NCBI GenBank assembly: GCA_936450465.1
Contig: OW388300.1
Coordinates: 20,275,232-20,339,231 of the forward strand
Direction of reading: 5' to 3'
Source: Gibbula magus
Taxonomy: Eukaryota; Mollusca; Gastropoda; Trochida; Trochidae
Length of the DNA stretch: 64,000 nt
Part shown: piece after piece, positions 22,190-31,626 of the stretch
How positions within the stretch are numbered: the stretch's first letter is position 1
Layout of the letters: every line of letters starts with the position of its first letter
Notes under the pieces: model-generated
Database searches by the model: none
What the model was told of the DNA's origin: nothing
What the model saw: only the letters and a program-made list of their open reading frames with translations
Position numbers and translations under genes: made by a program

Positions 22190-22393
22190 AATAGTACGTT
22201 TTTGATTAAACGTAATTATTTATACTTACCTGTTGACTAGACCTACTTTACCTTACCTCCTATAGGTAATGCTATTTCAACCTTAACACAGACGAACTTG
22301 AAGAGTGGAGAAGGGGTGCGTAAAAATCCCTTATACAAGGGGCGGTAAGTCTAGGTGGTCTCTTGACGTCACTACATGTTCATGTCACTCTCC
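22190..22393. repeat. DIRS inverted terminal repeat, 3' side of element
   Basis: From the ACTAGACCTAC block inward, this matches the complement of 28961-29130 nearly base for base, including GGTAATGCTATTTCAACC and GGGGCGGTAAGTCTAGGTGG. The outermost 39 bp differ from the other end, as is usual for the unequal outer ends of DIRS repeats. Confidence 0.85.
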
Positions 22394-22449
22394 GAAAGTC
22401 CCAAAAGGCAAGACAGACCAAGTGGGAGGATGGGAGGGCCTAGAGCGTA

Positions 22450-22550
22450 GGTCTAGTCAACAGGTAAGTATAAATAATTACGTTTAATCAAAAACGTACT
22501 ATTATTTAAATACCTATCTGTTGACTAGACCTACTTTGCCTAGAATCCCA
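22450..22550. repeat. DIRS internal complementary region
   Basis: Positions 22450-22507 are the reverse complement of 22190-22247. Positions 22502-22545 are the reverse complement of about 29100-29142. The two halves overlap at CTATT, the complement of the AATAG shared by both boundaries. This is the sequence expected of a pre-formed circle junction. Confidence 0.85.
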
Positions 22551-22847
22551 CCGCAAGGAGGCGGGTCAGTAGATACATGGTAGTGACGAGACCAGCGACT
22601 AGCCCTGAGTGTAAGCTAACCTACGAGTCCTCCACCCTTTGGTGAGGACAAGGTAAAGCCCGGGAGATACCATCTCTACCGCTTAGCGGATCGAAGAGAT
22701 AACCCTGCCACTCAATTTCCGATCAACACACTGCCCCCCCAAACCCCAACAGGGAGGGGGGGTGTTAAAGCGAAGTTAAAGAAAAAACCAACAGACACGA
22801 GAGCTAGCAATGTAAACCTTGTTTATTTACAATGAGCCTTAAAGCTC

Positions 22848-24175
22848 CTAAGGGGGTTGACCCCTTCTTGGTCTGGTTGGGGGGACCACCTTCGCCTGAG
22901 CGAAGATCTGTGGACCCAGCCTAGAGATGCCTTCAAGATCTGCTGTTGAGGCATCTCGTAGGTAATGGTTGGCGAAAACCTCTGATGAACGCCAAAAACA
23001 TCCTGCCATGACATCCGAAACCGCGATGTTGCAGTGATACGCCATCGTGGCTGATACTGCGCAGATCTCATGAGGGTTTGAACGCGAAGACGGAGGCAAG
23101 TCAGCGGCCTTGTACGCATCAATGACCGCCGACCTTAGATACACGCCCAATGCTCGCTTATCTAGCTCCTTGGTGCTTCTAGGCAAGTGAGGCAAGAAAA
23201 GACGACGTCTGCCGTCTCTCGGCCTGCGTGTACACCCTCAAGGCCCTCACCGGACACAGAGAGAGGTCCACCTCCCCCGACTCAGAACCCAGAGCCGGGA
23301 TAGAGAACGTACGGTCAGCCTCATCAGCTGCCTGGTTCTTACAGACAAAATCAGGAGCCCACCCGAGAGAGGCCGAACCCCCCTCCCTAACCTCAAAACG
23401 TAGAAGGTCCGCCTGCAACGCATGGATTTCAGCAATCCGCGCTGCCGTCCACAGAGCGGAAGGTTTTAATGAAGGCCCATGAGGACCGACACAACTAACC
23501 CTGGCGACCTCTTACCGAGGTGAGGTGAGTTAGGGTTTAACGCCGCTTACAAGAATATTTCACTTATATCGCGGCTGCTAGTATTACGGCAGGGAGAAAG
23601 CCCGCAACACCATATGGCTATGCATTGCGGTGAAACCTGCGAGCAATGGCTGGACTAGCGAACCATGGGTGATACTGCACTGAAGTTCAGTGTAGCCTGC
23701 ACCCAAAACTTACTGCATTCTCTACTAGAGACAAAAATGCCGTGCCCCTGGCGGGATTCGAACCCTGGACCTCTTGATCCGAAACCGAACGCACTAACCA
23801 CTGCGCTATCCCGCCCCCTCTTCCTGAGAACGGAGAGGATAGCAGACATGTTGGTATTAAGCGATGACGCCTTAAGACGCCTGGTGTAGCGTAGGTATAC
23901 TAATTACTCCGCCACCTGAGGAACTGAGGCCTCTGTCGGGATGAAATCTCTCCGAGCACAGAAGGAGGCGAAGACCTGCCACTGGAAAACATAGAGTTTT
24001 CTAGTGGTCTTCCTATGAGAGGTAGCTTTGGCATTGGCGACGGACCTCGAGTATCCACTGCTCTTTAGCCCTCTTTTAACACAAGCCAAGCGTGAAGGCA
24101 GAAACCCTGAGGGTTCACGTGTAACCTTTCGCTTGGCCTGCTGAGGAGCAGATCTCTCCGCGGCTGAATCGGAAA
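22848..24175 (-). pseudogene. DIRS tyrosine recombinase remnant, interrupted by a SINE
   Basis: On the minus strand, 24089-23904 encodes the N-terminal core-binding part (HRKTTRKLYVFQW, FCARRDFIP). The catalytic part resumes at about 23500 with AARIAEIHAL, which carries the box I arginine. CPVRALRVYTQ follows, then after a frameshift near 23195 KELDKRALGVYLRSAV, NPHEIC and FWRSSEVFANHYLRD. The last contains the nucleophilic tyrosine. HEIC stands where H-x-x-R is expected. TGC for arginine CGC is a CpG-type change that would abolish activity. SINE-2 (23518-23818) splits the frame. The recombinase is therefore broken at least three ways. Confidence 0.8.
23518..23818 (-). mobile_element. SINE-2, tRNA-Arg-headed, inside the DIRS recombinase
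   Basis: On the minus strand it starts GGCGGGATAGCGCAGTGG, which includes box A, followed by TTTCGGA as anticodon loop (TCG, arginine) and a perfect box B, GGTTCGAATCC. The body ends with GATATAAGTGAAATATTCTTG and GGCGTTAAACCCTAACTCAC, which resembles the tail of the V-type SINEs described from molluscs. The anticodon stem no longer pairs, so it is a retroposon and not a tRNA gene. Confidence 0.8.
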
Positions 24176-24198
24176 CAGGTTCCTGACGCCTTGGCTAC

Positions 24199-24384
24199 CT
24201 ACATGGGAGACATAGGTTGGCAATTGCCGAAAGGGAGAAAAAAACCCGACTTGACCCGAAGTAGTGCTGAACTCTTCAAAGACGAAGCAATGGACTTATG
24301 AATGACTGAAACATACGCCCGGAAACCTGAAGACGAAAGAGTGACACACTCGTTACACAGTTCCTTGCACTTCATACAAGGCAA
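24199..24384 (-). other. Cysteine-bearing frame between recombinase and minisatellite
   Basis: A 61-codon frame rich in serine, with CMKCKELC near its start. It could be the end of the element's gag region or unrelated. I do not recognise it. It is listed because it lies in DIRS coding orientation and outside the minisatellite. Confidence 0.3.
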
Positions 24385-24439
24385 GTCCTAGCAGACTTCC
24401 TACCTCTGCAATTACAAAAACGCAGAGTACATAGTGAAG

Positions 24440-25640
24440 CAAAAACGGCGGTAGTAGAGTAACTAGGTGAGTGATAGTCGAGACCTTGACGAGACCATCC
24501 AGTCACTAACAGGTGACTGACAAACGAGCCACTGACGCGTGTAAGCTAGGGGAGGTGAATGACACTCAATTCACTTAACAGGTGAGTGACAGACGAGCCA
24601 CTGAAGCGAGTAAGCTAGACGATGTGAGTGACAGGTGAAAGACAGTCGAGTCACTTAGCAGGTGAGTGACAGACGAACCACTAAAGCGTGTAATCCAGAC
24701 GAGGTGAGTGACACTCAAGTTACTTGACAGGTGAGCGCCAGGCGAGCGTGTAATCTAGACGAGGCGAGTGACAGTCTGGTCACCTAACAGGTGAGTGACA
24801 GCTGAACCCATAACGCGTGTTATCTAGACGAGGTGAGTGACAGGTGAGTGATACCCAAGTCACTCAACAGGTGAGTGACAGACAACAGATGAGTAACAGG
24901 CGAATCACTAACGAGCGTAATCTAGACGACGTGAGCGACAGTCTAACGCATGTAGTCTAGAGGAGGTGAGTGACAGGTGAGTGGCACTCACATCACTAAA
25001 CAAAAAAGTGATCTTGAGGAAGTTTGCATTAAGCAAACGAAACGTAGAAACCTGTAGATAGCTGGTTTTAGAGTAGTACACATCTATGTTATCCTAAACA
25101 GAAGAGTGACCGGCGATTCACTAACTTGCGTCATACAGACGAGGTGAATGACAAACGAGTCACTGATACGAAACACCTAATCAAAGCAGTGTAAGAACTC
25201 AGTTCCGACACTAAGACAACAACCCTTCCAATAGTTAAATACTTCAACAACACCAAGAGTGTAAACTCACAAACGTAGATAACGAGACGCTTAAGTGAAT
25301 AATACGCTTGAGATAATATATAATAATATAATAAGGTTGAGACGAGGCACTCAAGTCGAGTCGAAACTCACCTAACGCGAATGATTAGCGAGTGACAGGT
25401 GAAAAACGAGTGACTGGCGAGGCAAGCCACTGGCGAAGCAAATCACAGGTGAGACGAGGCGCGTCAACGCAGAGTCGAGCCTATATGGCGAGTCGAGTCT
25501 CAATGACTGCCGAGGCGAGTGACTGCCGAACCGAGTCACTGGCGAGATGATGCGAGTCCAAAAGAATCGAGCCTAAGGGTTGGCCAAGCGAGTAACTGGC
25601 GAAGCGAGTAACTGGCAAGGCAAGTCACTGGCGAGGCAAC
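24440..25640. repeat. GAGTGACAGGTGA minisatellite, irregular 60-90 bp units
   Basis: The array is built of GAGGTGAGTGACA, CGAGCCACTAACGCG and GTGTAATCTAGACGAGG blocks. GTAAGCTAG or GTAATCTAG landmarks recur at about 24540, 24609, 24688, 24747, 24817 and 24907, so the period is irregular. A unique segment at about 25003-25100 interrupts it. It lies where a DIRS element should carry reverse transcriptase. Confidence 0.85.
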
Positions 25641-25649
25641 GGGAGTCAA

Positions 25650-26499
25650 GCTGATTCAACTCGAAGGTGAATGACTGGCGAAGCGGATGCTTGGCGAAGC
25701 GGATGCTTGGCAAAGCGAATGCTTGTCGAAGCGAAGCCTACGCGAGAGACTTTTCCTTCCCGCGCGGGAGCTAAGTCCCCTTCAGAACAAAAGGAAGCCT
25801 TCCTGGCTGCCGACGAACGGGGTCCCGACACGCTGACCTGACTGAGTGGTACCTCCGCGAACGAGGCCATCTCCGACAGCCTTGGGACTGAGTCGATAAC
25901 CCCACACCCTCCGCATCCGACACTATATTGATGAACGGAGGGTCCAAGACCTCAACGAAGCGGACGTCACGCTCCGTCGAGTCTAGCGAGGAATCCCGGG
26001 TGGGCGACACCACCGTGACACGACGCATAGGGGTGTGAGAAACCCGCGAGGAGGCAGCGGACCCGGATGCCCTTGAAGACGTGGGACGCGAAATCTGAGA
26101 CACGCAGTCCGCATTGGGTTCCCGATCTAGCGTAGTAGCGGGGATCGTGAGACTAGGCAAAGCCAGCGGACCCAACTGAGCATCCAGCAATGAAGAGACC
26201 CTGTCCTTAACGGACGCAAGAAGGAGGTCCGGATTGACTTGGTCAAACCTATCCTTCTTGGCCTTCTTCTCCTTGCTCTTCGGTGTGGAGGGTCCGCTGA
26301 CCTTAAGTCTCAAAGGCGACATACGCCTGTCTGGCGAAGGGGGAGGCGACGTACAAGTCTGCAGCCGAGAACGCAAACGCGAAGGGGGAGAGAGCGAATC
26401 TCTCAACCCCTAGCGAAGTCGGAAGAACCCGGCGACTCCCTGTCGAAATCATCCGCCCGTTCCCTAAGTACCAAGTCTACCGCCTCCTCGGGAGACTAG
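25650..26499 (-). pseudogene. DIRS gag-like remnant
   Basis: On the minus strand a first segment (about 26499-26405), with AVDLVLRERADDF, runs into a frameshift. A second frame (26406-25771) carries SPPPSPDRRMSPLRLKVSG and a Lys-rich KSKEKKAKKDRF stretch, then serine-rich low complexity. A third frame (25870-25646) continues it. Proline/serine-rich gag-like proteins with such a basic patch occur in metazoan DIRS elements. That match is from memory and approximate. The ORF cannot be translated as one protein. Confidence 0.6.
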
Positions 26500-28640
26500 T
26501 GACGAATGGAAGAGTTGAATAACCGGCGAATCACTGACGCGAAACACCTAAGTTGATCTAATTACACAAAGCGCGAGTCCGCGAATGAGAACGTGAACAC
26601 GAACGGGGAGAGAGCGAATCTTAGAGCGAATGGCTGTGACATCCCTCCGCAATTCGTGCAAAAAGCGGAGTACATGGTGGAGCAGGCGAAACACTAACAC
26701 ACGTGACGTAGACGAAGGTAGTGACAGTCGAGTCACTCACGCAGGAGAGTGAAAGACGAGATACTCGCACGCGTAGCGTAGACGAGGTGAATCACTAACG
26801 CGAGACACTTGAGTAGCGTAGCGTAAGAAAGTTGAAAACAAAGGCTCTTAACTCGAAGAGAACAAAGTCAATATCAAACCCTCCGCAATTCGCGCAAAAA
26901 ACGGAGTACATGTCGGAGCCGGCGTAACACACGTGACGTAGGCGAAAGGTAGTGACAGTCGAGTCACGTACGCAGGAGGGCGAAGGACGAGACACGTAGC
27001 GTAGAAGAGGCGAGTCACTAGACGAGTCGAATCACTAACGCGAGACACTTACGTAGCGTAGCATAAGAACCAACAAACTCCTCCAATAGTTAATCGAGAG
27101 AGTTGAAACAAGGCTCCGAACTTGAAGAGGACAAAGCCAATATCAAGTAATGGTTGGTCAAGATAAGTGACTGGCGAACCAGCTTACACTGATAACCACC
27201 TACGAGACGAGACTAATCAAATATACAAACCAAAGGCGAAAGACTAACGAAACGAATGACAAGCGAAGCGAATGACAGGCGAACCAAGTCACTGGCGAGA
27301 TGATGCAAGTCAAATCGAATCGGGCCTAACGCGAGCGACGAGCCTAAGGCGATAGACTGGCGAAGCAAGTGCCTGGCTTAAGCGAGGCACTGGCGAGACG
27401 ATGCGAGTCTAGTAGAATCAAGCCTATGGCGAATGACTGGCGAAGCGAATGATTGGCGTAGCGAGTCACTTGCCCGACAAAGCGAGTCAAGTTGATTCGA
27501 CCTAAGGCGATAGACTGGCGAAGCGAGTGACTGGCCTAAGCGAGACACTGGCGAGACGATGCGAGTCAAGTAGAATCAAGCCTATGGCGAATGACTGGCG
27601 AAGCGAATGATTGGCGTAGCGAGTCACTTGCGAGACGAAGCGAGTCAAGATGATTCGACCTAAGGCGATAGACTGGCGAAGCGAGGGACTGGCCTAAGCG
27701 AGACACTGGCGGGTAGATGCGAGTCAGTAGAATCGAACCTAAGGCGAAAGACTGGCGAAGCAAGTGACTGGCGAAGCGAATCACTGGCGAGACGAAACGA
27801 ACCCCACAGATTCAACCTTAGGCGATGGACTAGTGAAGCGAGTGACTGGCGTAAGCTAGACACTGGCGGGTAGATGCGAGTCAAGTAGAATCGAACCAAA
27901 GGGGAACCTGTCGAAGGGGGGTCCGCCGCGTAGCGAGTCAAGTTGATTCGACCTAAGGCGATGGACTGGCGAAGCGAGTGACTGGCGTAAGCGAGACACT
28001 GGCGGGTAGATGCGAGTCAAGTAGAATCGAGCCTAAGGCGAAAGACTGGCGAAGCAAGTGACTGGCGAAGCGAATCACTGGCGAGACGAAACGAACCCCA
28101 CAGATTCAACCTAAGGCGATGGACTAGCGAAGCGAGTGACTGGCGTAAGCTAGACACTGGCGAGTAGATGCGAGTCAAGTAGAATCGAGCCAAAGGGGAA
28201 ACTGTCGAATGGGGGTCCGCCGCGTAGCGAGTCAAATTGATTCAACCTAAGGCGATGGACTAGCGAAGCGAGTGACTGGCGTAAGCGAGACACTGGCGAG
28301 TAGATGCTAGTACAGTAGAATAGAGCCAAAGGCGAATGGTAGGCGAAACCAATAACTGGCGAAGCGAATCACTGGCGAGTCGGAGCGAGTCCAGTCGATT
28401 TCAACCAAAGGCGATAGACTAGCGAAGCGAGTGACTGGCGTAAGCGAGACACTGGCGAGACACTGCTAGTACAATAGAATCAAGCCAAAGGGTCCGCTCG
28501 CGTAGTGATAAGCTAGGCGAGTGACTGGAGACGCGTAGGTAGTTGATACGGACCGAAGGCGAATGACTGGCGGACGTGAATGACAAGCGAAGCAAGTCAC
28601 AGGCGTATGGCGAAGCGAGTCAACAACCAACAGTCGAAGG
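26500..28640. repeat. GACTGGCGAAGCGAGT minisatellite with ~290-bp higher-order units
   Basis: Short blocks such as GACTGGCGAAGCGAGTGAC and GAGACACTGGCGAGACGATG alternate. The landmark CCTAAGGCGATGGAC recurs about every 130-165 bp, at about 27508, 27657, 27822, 27950, 28111, 28245 and 28405. Alternate units are more alike, giving a dimer of about 290-295 bp. The left part (26500-27180) has a different AGTCACTAACGCGAGACACTT unit. Frames run open across it by composition only. Confidence 0.85.
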
Positions 28641-28960
28641 TGACTGGCGGAGGGTACGCCTTACAAGGCGTGCGAACCGAAGCAGTCAATGAAGACAGGT
28701 GAGAGAAACACAAAGACTGCACGTGCAAGGCAAGCAGCTACCTCTCGGGCGGCCACACATCAAGCACATGTCAACAAGGCCATTGTACCCCAACACCTAC
28801 TAAAACAGATTGTTAAACAACCTGCTAAAGACGAATTGTAGATATAGTTGAAAATATCCCTCAAAATAGTAAGAGATAGCTAGCAAGTTAGCAACCAAGT
28901 CGCTAAAAATACCCAGTCTCAGAACAAAACAAACATGTCTGTCTTGCTCTGCAACTAATA

Positions 28961-29142
28961 GGAGAGTGACATGAACAGGTAGTGACGTCACGAGACCACC
29001 TAGACTTACCGCCCCTTGGATAAGGGATTTTACGCACCCCTTCTCCACTCTTCAAGTTCGTCTGTGTTAAGGTTGAAATAGCATTACCTATAGGAGGTAA
29101 GGCAAAGTAGGTCTAGTCAACAGATAGGTATTCAAATAATAG
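28961..29142. repeat. DIRS inverted terminal repeat, 5' side of element
   Basis: Reverse complement of 22190-22393 from GGAGAGTGACATGAAC to GTAGGTCTAGTCAACAG. The outer CAGATAGGTATTCAAATAATAG is matched in inverted form by the internal complementary region and not by the opposite terminal repeat. Confidence 0.85.
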
Positions 29143-29761: not shown

Positions 29762-31626
29762 GATATCGTAAGTAAAACGTAGGTAAAACGTAGGTAAAAC
29801 AAACCTACCTCCTATATAACATAGAGTAAAGGAGCAAGGGCAGCCATTTTGCCGATCTAAGGGTCCATTCAACATTAGGTCAAAAGTTACTCTAAGAATT
29901 GGTGACATACACAAATGAACGCCCGTACTTATTAATTATACATTTCTACGCAAAACCCGGCTGATTGTCACCCCTAGAATAACTTTAATATTTAATTTGA
30001 CCACAAAAACTTCTCCCATGAACGTTAGTCCGCAGTCGCTCCCCATTCGAACGATCTGATTGGTCTGTTGAGTTGAACTATTAATATAGTATCCGTAAAC
30101 AAACACGACGACTTGGCGAGACGACAGGATATTTCGAAAATTTCTACACTATGAATTCAACACCTGATCAGAGGAAAGCTTTGAAATGTGAGCAACAGAG
30201 CCAGCTCAACGGACCAATCAGATCGTACGAAGTGTTTCGACCTCGGTCTAACGTTCACGGGAGAGGTTTTTGTGGTGGTTTTCGAGTTTGAAGTGCTATT
30301 AAACTTGTCGTAGGGGTGACATATGGTGGAAATCAGCCGGGTTTTGCGGAGAAATGTATAGGTGATAGGTACGTACGTTCATTTGGGAATGTCCCATTTT
30401 TAGCTCATCAGGCCTGAAACTCCAGAGAGCTGAAATTTTATGTACAGACTCCTTGGCCAATGGGGATTCTAAATTGTAGATTTGGTGACCCTGTGACCCC
30501 AAATAAGGGCCTCACAGGCCATTACCTAAAATCCTGTTTTCATCTTTTTCTCCGGAACAAAAAGATCTAGAAGGCTGTGATATTGTATGCAAACTCTTTA
30601 GCCAATGGGGATTCTAACTTGTAAATTTGGTGACCCTTTGGTGACCCCAAATATGGGCCACAGCCTAAAAAACCTTTGAAAATGAATTTTGAACTGATAT
30701 TTTATGTGCACTTCATTCACTTTATTTGAAATGTATGTCGACTTGAGATAACAATCTACATTGTGGACATGTTTGTCAAATTGATGAAATCAATGTGAAA
30801 TGAGAACTATTGAATAGCCTATGAACTGAAAATTGTGACAAGGCATAAAGGACTAAATTGAAGAGGAGTTAAGAATTCTTTTATTTTACATGAGATATGT
30901 GAACTGCATATGACTGGTGATGAAATGATAAGATAAGACTATTTTCATCTTCTTCTCCAGAACGAAAAGACCTAGAAGGTTGTCATGTTGTGTAAAGAGT
31001 CTTTAGCCAATGGAGATTCTAAATTGTAGATTTGGTGACCCTGTGGCCCCAAATAAGGGCCTCGCAGGCCATTACCTAAAATCCTGTTTTCATCCAGAAC
31101 AAACTAGAAGGAATATTTTGTTCAGAATGTTTAGATGTTTGGATGACAAGGCTTATAACCGAGATAGTTTAGCCAAGGTGATTCTAAATTGTACTATGTA
31201 CCATGAGATTCATCACATTGCCTGTTCTCTTTAAGCCTTATACAGTTAGATCAGTGCTGCCAGTGTTTAGTGCAAGCAAGAGTCTATTACATAATTTGGC
31301 GGTAAAACACAAAAAACACAGCTGGCTTGTAACCAGAGCCAAGGGGTCAGAATATATCTCCTGTGTGTTGACCTTGCTGAGTGCTCTCTCTCAATTTCAA
31401 GAATAAGATTTGTCAGGGTTAGGGATCGTACATTATATTGAGACAACATATTTCTGTCTTCATCATCAAACAAAATAAACTCTGATGAGCTACAGAGCCC
31501 ATGGCTCTATTTTTTTAGCTTTACTTTTAACCTAATGTTGAATGGACCCTTAGATCGGCAAAATGGCTGCCCTTGCTCCTTTACTTTATGTTATATAGGG
31601 GGTATGTTTGTTTTACGTACGATATC
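29762..31626. mobile_element. 1.9-kb foldback element with nested inverted repeats
   Basis: The outer arms, about 110 bp, start GATATCGTA and end TACGATATC. They include GGGCAGCCATTTTGCCGATC and its complement near 31555. Inside, a second inverted repeat pairs about 29905-30100 with 30180-30400 (for example CAAAACCCGGCTGATTGTCA against a CAGCCGGGTTTTG copy). The remaining centre has three diverged direct units at about 30410, 30560 and 30955, each with GCCAATGGGGATTCTAA and TTTGGTGACCC. No protein is encoded. It is probably a non-autonomous foldback DNA transposon. Confidence 0.75.

What the first reader, a model, noticed from the sequence alone, without database searches (positions are those of the whole stretch)
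22190..29142. Complete DIRS termini with an internal complementary region that records the circle junction
The region at 22450-22550 is the complement of the left outer end joined to the complement of the right outer end, with the shared AATAG present once (as CTATT). This is what the DIRS replication model predicts, and here it is preserved although the coding part has decayed. The two outer ends differ, so the internal region must have been templated from both. It also fixes the element's boundaries to within five bases.
Basis: partly seen in the sequence, partly recalled or inferred. Interest (0 to 1): 0.75.

Follow-up and report, generated by a model that had tools for sequence, protein, structure and literature searches.

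The report
Decayed DIRS retrotransposon with circle-junction record
This is a broken copy of a very abundant jumping element of the known DIRS kind, probably from an abalone-like snail, and its sister copies let one ask by inheritance which parts of its ends are rebuilt from an internal backup copy.

Summary
Window 22447-22541, reverse-complemented, is the right outer end (42 of 43 bases) fused to the left outer end (57 of 57), AATAG present once. [quoted passage not shown] The host genome (1.47 Gb; probably abalone-like) holds many copies: 1498 exact hits to a 27-mer of right end/ICR. Sister copy L071 encodes RT-RNase H and a tyrosine recombinase with its catalytic residues; the window copy has lost nearly all of pol and its recombinase is broken.

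Corrections: the junction core is about four bases, AATA; the G is chance. The published model copies the ends from the ICR, not the reverse.

Sister copies bear on that model. Variant T12G sits in both ICR and left end in 29 pairs and in 7 of 7 readable singles (21 singles unexamined), but in one lineage. Variant T33A is ICR-only in 12 of 14 distinct insertions. A sister family has changed ICR and end together. So ICR and ends evolve in concert; regular copying may reach only the outermost stretch. That rests on few variants. Known kind, modest interest.

The parts
22190..22193 (.). left copy of the junction core (AATA); in sister copies its first two bases vary, so it is largely target-derived
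   Evidence: 44 distinct left flanks of the C1 sample: -1 A 44, -2 T 42, -3 A 35, -4 A 36
22194..22221 (-). left outer end (3' end in coding sense), extension complementary to the ICR only
   Evidence: outside the repeat arms, inside the ICR match
22222..22393 (-). left inverted terminal repeat (two gap-free arms)
   Evidence: arms I1 and I2, 96-97% complementary to 28961-29131
22447..22541 (.). internal complementary region: complement of the left end (22447-22503) joined to complement of the right end (22499-22541)
22854..23457 (-). C-terminal part of a tyrosine recombinase in two frames; HEIC in place of the HxxR motif
   Evidence: tblastn of L071 ORF999: 94% over 116 aa, 88% over 82 aa; frames; motif
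23520..23817 (-). tRNA-like SINE-type insertion (read by eye)
   Evidence: absent from L071 at this place, related stretch in L072 at 85%; ARAGORN found no tRNA gene in the window
23787..24173 (-). more N-terminal part of the recombinase frame (131 aa matched), gapped from the C-terminal part
   Evidence: tblastn of L071 ORF999 residues 612-742, 79%
24501..25733 (.). tandem-repeat DNA between recombinase and gag remnants, where L071 has pol
   Evidence: the RT-RNase H frame of L071 matches the window only over 35 aa
25760..26732 (-). remnant of the first (gag-like) frame
   Evidence: tblastn of L071 ORF616, 34-66% in pieces
27343..28492 (.). tandem array (periods 79, 158, 294) in the 5' leader in coding sense
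28961..29131 (+). right inverted terminal repeat
29132..29137 (+). outermost right end (5' end in coding sense), complementary to the ICR only
29138..29141 (.). right copy of the junction core (AATA); the G at 29142 is flank

Best explanation
A decayed copy, nearly without pol, of a high-copy DIRS1-like tyrosine-recombinase retrotransposon, coding strand minus. Model (published; inferred here): the RNA lacks the outermost bases of both termini; the ICR, which holds both ends in fused form, serves as template and splint so that the cDNA ends are completed and joined into a circle with one AATA core; the recombinase then crosses the circle into an A+T-rich target (about TAWAATA) without target duplication. 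Shown here: the geometry, family membership, common end points of sampled sister copies, target logo, homogenised terminal repeats, and sharing of some ICR variants with outer ends. Inferred: RNA ends, circle, recombination steps.
For: Geometry. Copies: 1498 exact 27-mer hits and 2276 hits to the 53-base end/ICR stretch within 3 mismatches, 0 for the reversed controls. Sister copy L071 has a gag-like frame, RT-RNase H (RVT_1 9.1e-24) and a recombinase; R161, K194, H287, R290, W313, Y323 are invariant in it and 13 relatives. Terminal repeats: 1 difference in 147 within L071 and within L072, 5 in 147 within the window copy, 16-17 between left repeats of window and L071/L072; 18 of the 21 C1 pairs that could be compared (of 23) are identical over 36 bases. 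T12G in both ICR and end: 29 positional pairs (concordant by construction), 6 of 6 fetched singles with a readable partner, and L093. Sister family: 9 of 14 fetched copies have both parts; A20C agrees in 8 of 9, T33C in 8 of 9. Single copies with a variant in both places: L059 (base 10), L225 (20), L227 (44), L206 (33). LINE remnant: rejoined flanks give RVT_1 at 1.4e-15 across the join.
Against: T33A is in the ICR but not the end in 12 of 14 distinct insertions (11 of 13 if L201, partner score 36, is dropped too). A14T is shared by the ICRs of L202 and L206 yet absent from both ends, and it lies in the extension that the model says must come from the ICR. L058 and L201 carry G10T in the ICR only. 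T12G is one lineage, so it shows one transfer, not one per cycle. The 21-to-7 excess of end over ICR variants in the first 40 copies was not reproduced in the C1 sample (13 against 12, first 37 bases). No methyltransferase match in Pfam. No circle or RNA was examined.
Confidence: 0.93

Rival explanations
1. ICR and ends are inherited as plain linear DNA and look alike only because the recombinase and host factors constrain both; no templating.
For: T33A stays ICR-only in 12 of 14 distinct insertions; ends and ICR are much more conserved than the DNA between them in 117 aligned copies.
Against: T12G in both places in 29 pairs and 7 of 7 readable singles; sister family changed at 20 and 33 in both places; four single copies with a shared variant.
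Confidence: 0.05
2. ICR and end are equalised after insertion by gene conversion between the two inverted copies about 250 bp apart.
For: Would explain single-copy sharing (L059, L225, L227, L206) and its patchiness.
Against: Would not by itself explain the fused arrangement of both ends in the ICR, nor near-equal terminal repeats several kb apart. Not excluded for the left end.
Confidence: 0.12
3. The 22447-22541 stretch is a separate small foldback insertion.
For: None found.
Against: 47 of 53 sampled ICRs lie at the usual distance from the same outer end, at 44 distinct flanks.
Confidence: 0.01

Closest known systems
DIRS1-like retrotransposons of molluscs (LgDIRS, AcaDIRS; passages of PMC3266345 incl. 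Table 3)
   Same: Inverted terminal repeats, ICR in two halves overlapping at an A+T junction, right extension, ICR at the 3' end, RT/RH and recombinase, ATT/AAT termini.
   Different: Listed mollusc elements are 4.7-5.8 kb with a 3-bp junction; L071 is about 7.1 kb, the core here is about 4 bp, and long frames overlap in L071, which that paper reports for none of its molluscs.
DIRS-1 of Dictyostelium (passages of PMC5633606)
   Same: ICR complementary to both ends; proposed rebuilding of missing ends from the ICR; circular DNA reported there.
   Different: DIRS-1 is said to prefer its own copies as targets; sampled copies here sit at many different A+T-rich sites.
Haliotis asinina uncharacterised proteins (P0001, P0122)
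   Same: 73% and 70% identical to the RT and recombinase frames of L071 over 73% and 96% of the query.
   Different: Only labelled uncharacterised; element structure not examined.

Membership tests
DIRS1-like | ICR complementary to both ends, overlapping at the junction | tested here: met
DIRS1-like | inverted terminal repeats, matched within an element | tested here: met
DIRS1-like | extension complementary to the ICR only | tested here: met
   22190-22221 lies outside the repeat arms but inside the ICR match
DIRS1-like | reverse transcriptase and RNase H | tested here: met
   in sister copy L071; only 35 aa of that frame left in the window copy
DIRS1-like | tyrosine recombinase with catalytic residues | tested here: met
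   L071 and 13 relatives (catalytic roles recalled); broken in the window copy
DIRS1-like | methyltransferase domain after RNase H | tested here: inconclusive
   no Pfam match; sequence follows RNase H, its likeness to the DIRS domain is recalled only
DIRS1-like | no target-site duplication | tested here: inconclusive
   no repeat beyond the core seen at the flanks of 23 C1 pairs, by eye; one insertion in a LINE remnant rejoins in frame; empty-site search did not complete
PAT / Ngaro | split direct repeats instead of inverted repeats | tested here: not met
   terminal repeats are inverted
Crypton | recombinase without reverse transcriptase (recalled) | tested here: not met
   RT in the family

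The most novel reading that the evidence does not exclude
Natural variants in roughly a thousand sister copies map how far ICR templating reaches: as a rule only the extension (roughly the outer 13-30 bases of the left end) is copied from the ICR, while the adjoining repeat part comes from the RNA's own terminal repeat, with occasional longer copying.
Probability: 0.3. Interest if true: 0.55.

Novelty: new member of a known kind. Interest (0 to 1): 0.36.

Why it matters
The DIRS replication model is described as not fully proven experimentally (passage of PMC5633606). A recent family with roughly a thousand copies in a genome of 140 contigs turns it into a counting problem: which ICR variants pass to the ends and which do not. 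The window copy alone is ordinary.

Tried and rejected
Separate foldback insertion: rejected. AATAG as a five-base core: rejected. Excess of mutations in outer ends as a sign of error-prone end synthesis: suggested (21 against 7), not reproduced (13 against 12), dropped. A20T as an inherited end variant: it recurs in different haplotypes at a level like other substitutions, dropped. Pfam on five fragments of the window copy gave no match at cut-off. The tree-based count of joint changes was used only for T12G, because duplicates and poorly aligned rows weaken the rest. Target logo: the first 40 copies were picked by likeness to the window's own AATAG, so the logo is given from the C1 sample alone, not from the pooled 81. 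Rows dropped before the T33A count: L194 and L196 (partner not readable), duplicates L099-L101 and L193, leaving 14 of 20; 7 of the 33 T33A places were not fetched. Sister family: L216, L218, L219, L221 and L232 have no readable partner, leaving 9 of 14.

Full report
The observation. The repeat finder gave two inverted matches that meet inside the element: 22190-22246 with 22447-22503 (57/57) and 22499-22541 with 29100-29142 (42/43). Reverse-complemented, 22447-22541 reads right end - AATAG - left end, with the five bases present once; 100 shuffles of the interior never matched better than 29/57 and 25/43. Long inverted repeats flank the whole (22222-22393 and 28961-29131).

What it is. The window lies on contig C12 of a 1.47 Gb genome. 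A 27-mer spanning right end and core has 1498 exact hits, the 53-base left end/ICR stretch 2276 hits within three mismatches; reversed controls gave none. I took the 100 listed places of the 27-mer, all on C1: 53 were ICRs and 47 were put down as right ends, one of which (L165) is really a truncated ICR. 47 of the 53 ICRs have the outer end at the usual distance. ICR-to-right-end distances in 23 C1 pairs run from 2.1 to 7.5 kb, four of them exactly 6759.

Coding content. One copy, L071, has three long frames on the minus strand: 616 aa (gag-like by position), 729 aa with RVT_1 (9.1e-24) and RNase H (7.1e-7), and an overlapping 999-aa frame whose C-terminal 360 aa are a tyrosine recombinase. 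In an alignment of L071 and 13 relatives R161, K194, H287, R290, W313 and Y323 are invariant; their catalytic roles are recalled. Four of 50 recombinase relatives found carry the phage-integrase domain PF00589. The three best RT relatives are from Haliotis asinina (64-73%), and an H. asinina protein at 70% is second among recombinase relatives, so the host is probably an abalone or a near relative; this is inference. The window copy keeps recombinase pieces (79-94% identical, frame broken, HEIC for HEIR), gag remnants, and only 35 aa of the pol frame; tandem repeats stand where pol should be. L072 shows no long pol frame but keeps a 616-aa gag-like one, so pol-less copies may move with help in trans; this was not tested.

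Boundaries and target. In 44 distinct left flanks of the C1 sample the bases before GTACG are, going outward, A 44, T 42, A 35, A 36, T or A 44, A 39, T 26; the last four bases are AATA 25, TATA 8, ATTA 6, ACTA 3, AAAA 2. The pooled figures (81 flanks) also hold copies chosen by likeness to the window's AATAG and overstate AATA. The core at the left is therefore largely target DNA, matched to the circle core. After the right-end AATAATA the next base is G 12, T 15, C 5, A 13 of 45 distinct: the G of AATAG in the window is chance. Right cores were required to be AATAATA by that sampling, so their variability is not measured; among the 30 right-end loci two (L031, L032) read AATAATG. One insertion (L002 with L031) lies in a LINE remnant; flanks rejoined with one core read through the reverse transcriptase region, RVT_1 1.4e-15 over residues 14-119 with the join near 62. 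This fits insertion without duplication. The genome search for rejoined flanks did not complete (last try).

Concerted change. Terminal repeats are homogeneous within a copy and different between subfamilies: 1 difference in 147 within L071 and within L072, 5 in the window, 16-17 between left repeats of window and either. Of 23 C1 pairs, 21 could be compared over 36 bases: 18 identical, two with 1 difference, one (L172/L171) with 15. ICR and left end: numbering from the G of GTACG (window 22194 = 0), T12G has 120 hits; of the 100 listed, 58 form 29 ICR-end pairs and 42 are single. Pairs are concordant by construction, so the singles are the test. One single (L093) was already held and is concordant; 20 more were fetched: 6 have a partner aligning with score 40 or more and all 6 carry G12; 14 have no partner or one too damaged, two of them (L189, L190) with an ICR that turns into unrelated sequence outward of about base 15. 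21 singles were not examined. The T12G copies form one subfamily, so this counts as one event. A sister family differs at 20 and 33 and inside the repeat; of 14 such copies fetched (each picked for a variant in one part), 9 have both ICR and end, and in these A20C agrees in 8 (L224 has T in the end) and T33C in 8 (L223 has an altered ICR). Single copies with a variant in both places: L059, L206, L225, L227.

Discordance. T33A has 33 hits and no pair. Six lay in the C1 sample, 20 were fetched, 7 were not. Of 20 copies with it aligned in the ICR (one, L107, outside the 33 exact hits), two were dropped as unreadable and four as duplicates; of the 14 left, 12 have the common base in the end, one (L206) the variant, one (L200) a third base; L201 among the 12 has a damaged partner (score 36). 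T33A in the end only was seen in three rows, two of them duplicates. T33 (window 22227) lies inside the terminal repeat, T12 (22206) in the extension. This is what one expects if the RNA still carries the repeat but not the extension. Against this neat reading, A14T (extension) is shared by the ICRs of L202 and L206 and missing from both ends, and G10T is ICR-only in L058 and L201. Searches of positions 8, 10, 14 and 15 did not complete.

Comparison with print. PMC3266345 (passages) describes ITRs, two ICRs overlapping at a 3-bp circular junction, left and right extensions, and mollusc elements ending in ATT or AAT. PMC5633606 (passages) says that missing terminal sequence would be rebuilt with the ICR as template and that the mechanism is not fully proven; circles were shown in one mutant. 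PMC9210276 (passages) gives the same anatomy in frogs. The searches listed no paper that, by title or shown abstract, uses within-genome variants to test ICR templating; they cover only the open library, and the other listed papers were not opened.

Verdict. A real and correctly read feature, a member of a known kind. The useful part is the family around it.

Noticed in passing
window 29904-30393: Nested inverted repeats (arms of 69, 39, 30 and 25 bp) just right of the element, like a small foldback or MITE-type element.
   Followed up: no
window 23520-23817: tRNA-like SINE-type insertion inside the decayed recombinase region; a relative lies in L072.
   Followed up: partly
G000 C1 23766359-23774285 (L098-L101): Four copies about 2.63 kb apart with the same flank: a tandem array that includes a DIRS end.
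   Followed up: no
L025 and L026; L108, L110, L112: Copies sharing identical flanks at different places, i.e. segmental duplications carrying the element; L208 and L209 look alike too.
   Followed up: no
window 27343-28492 and L071 5716-6586: Tandem arrays with units of 16 to 294 bp in the 5' leader in coding sense; they differ between copies.
   Followed up: partly
L213-L224, L231, L232: A sister DIRS family with a different inner repeat (GTTGATAACTCACC in several) but nearly the same outermost end.
   Followed up: partly
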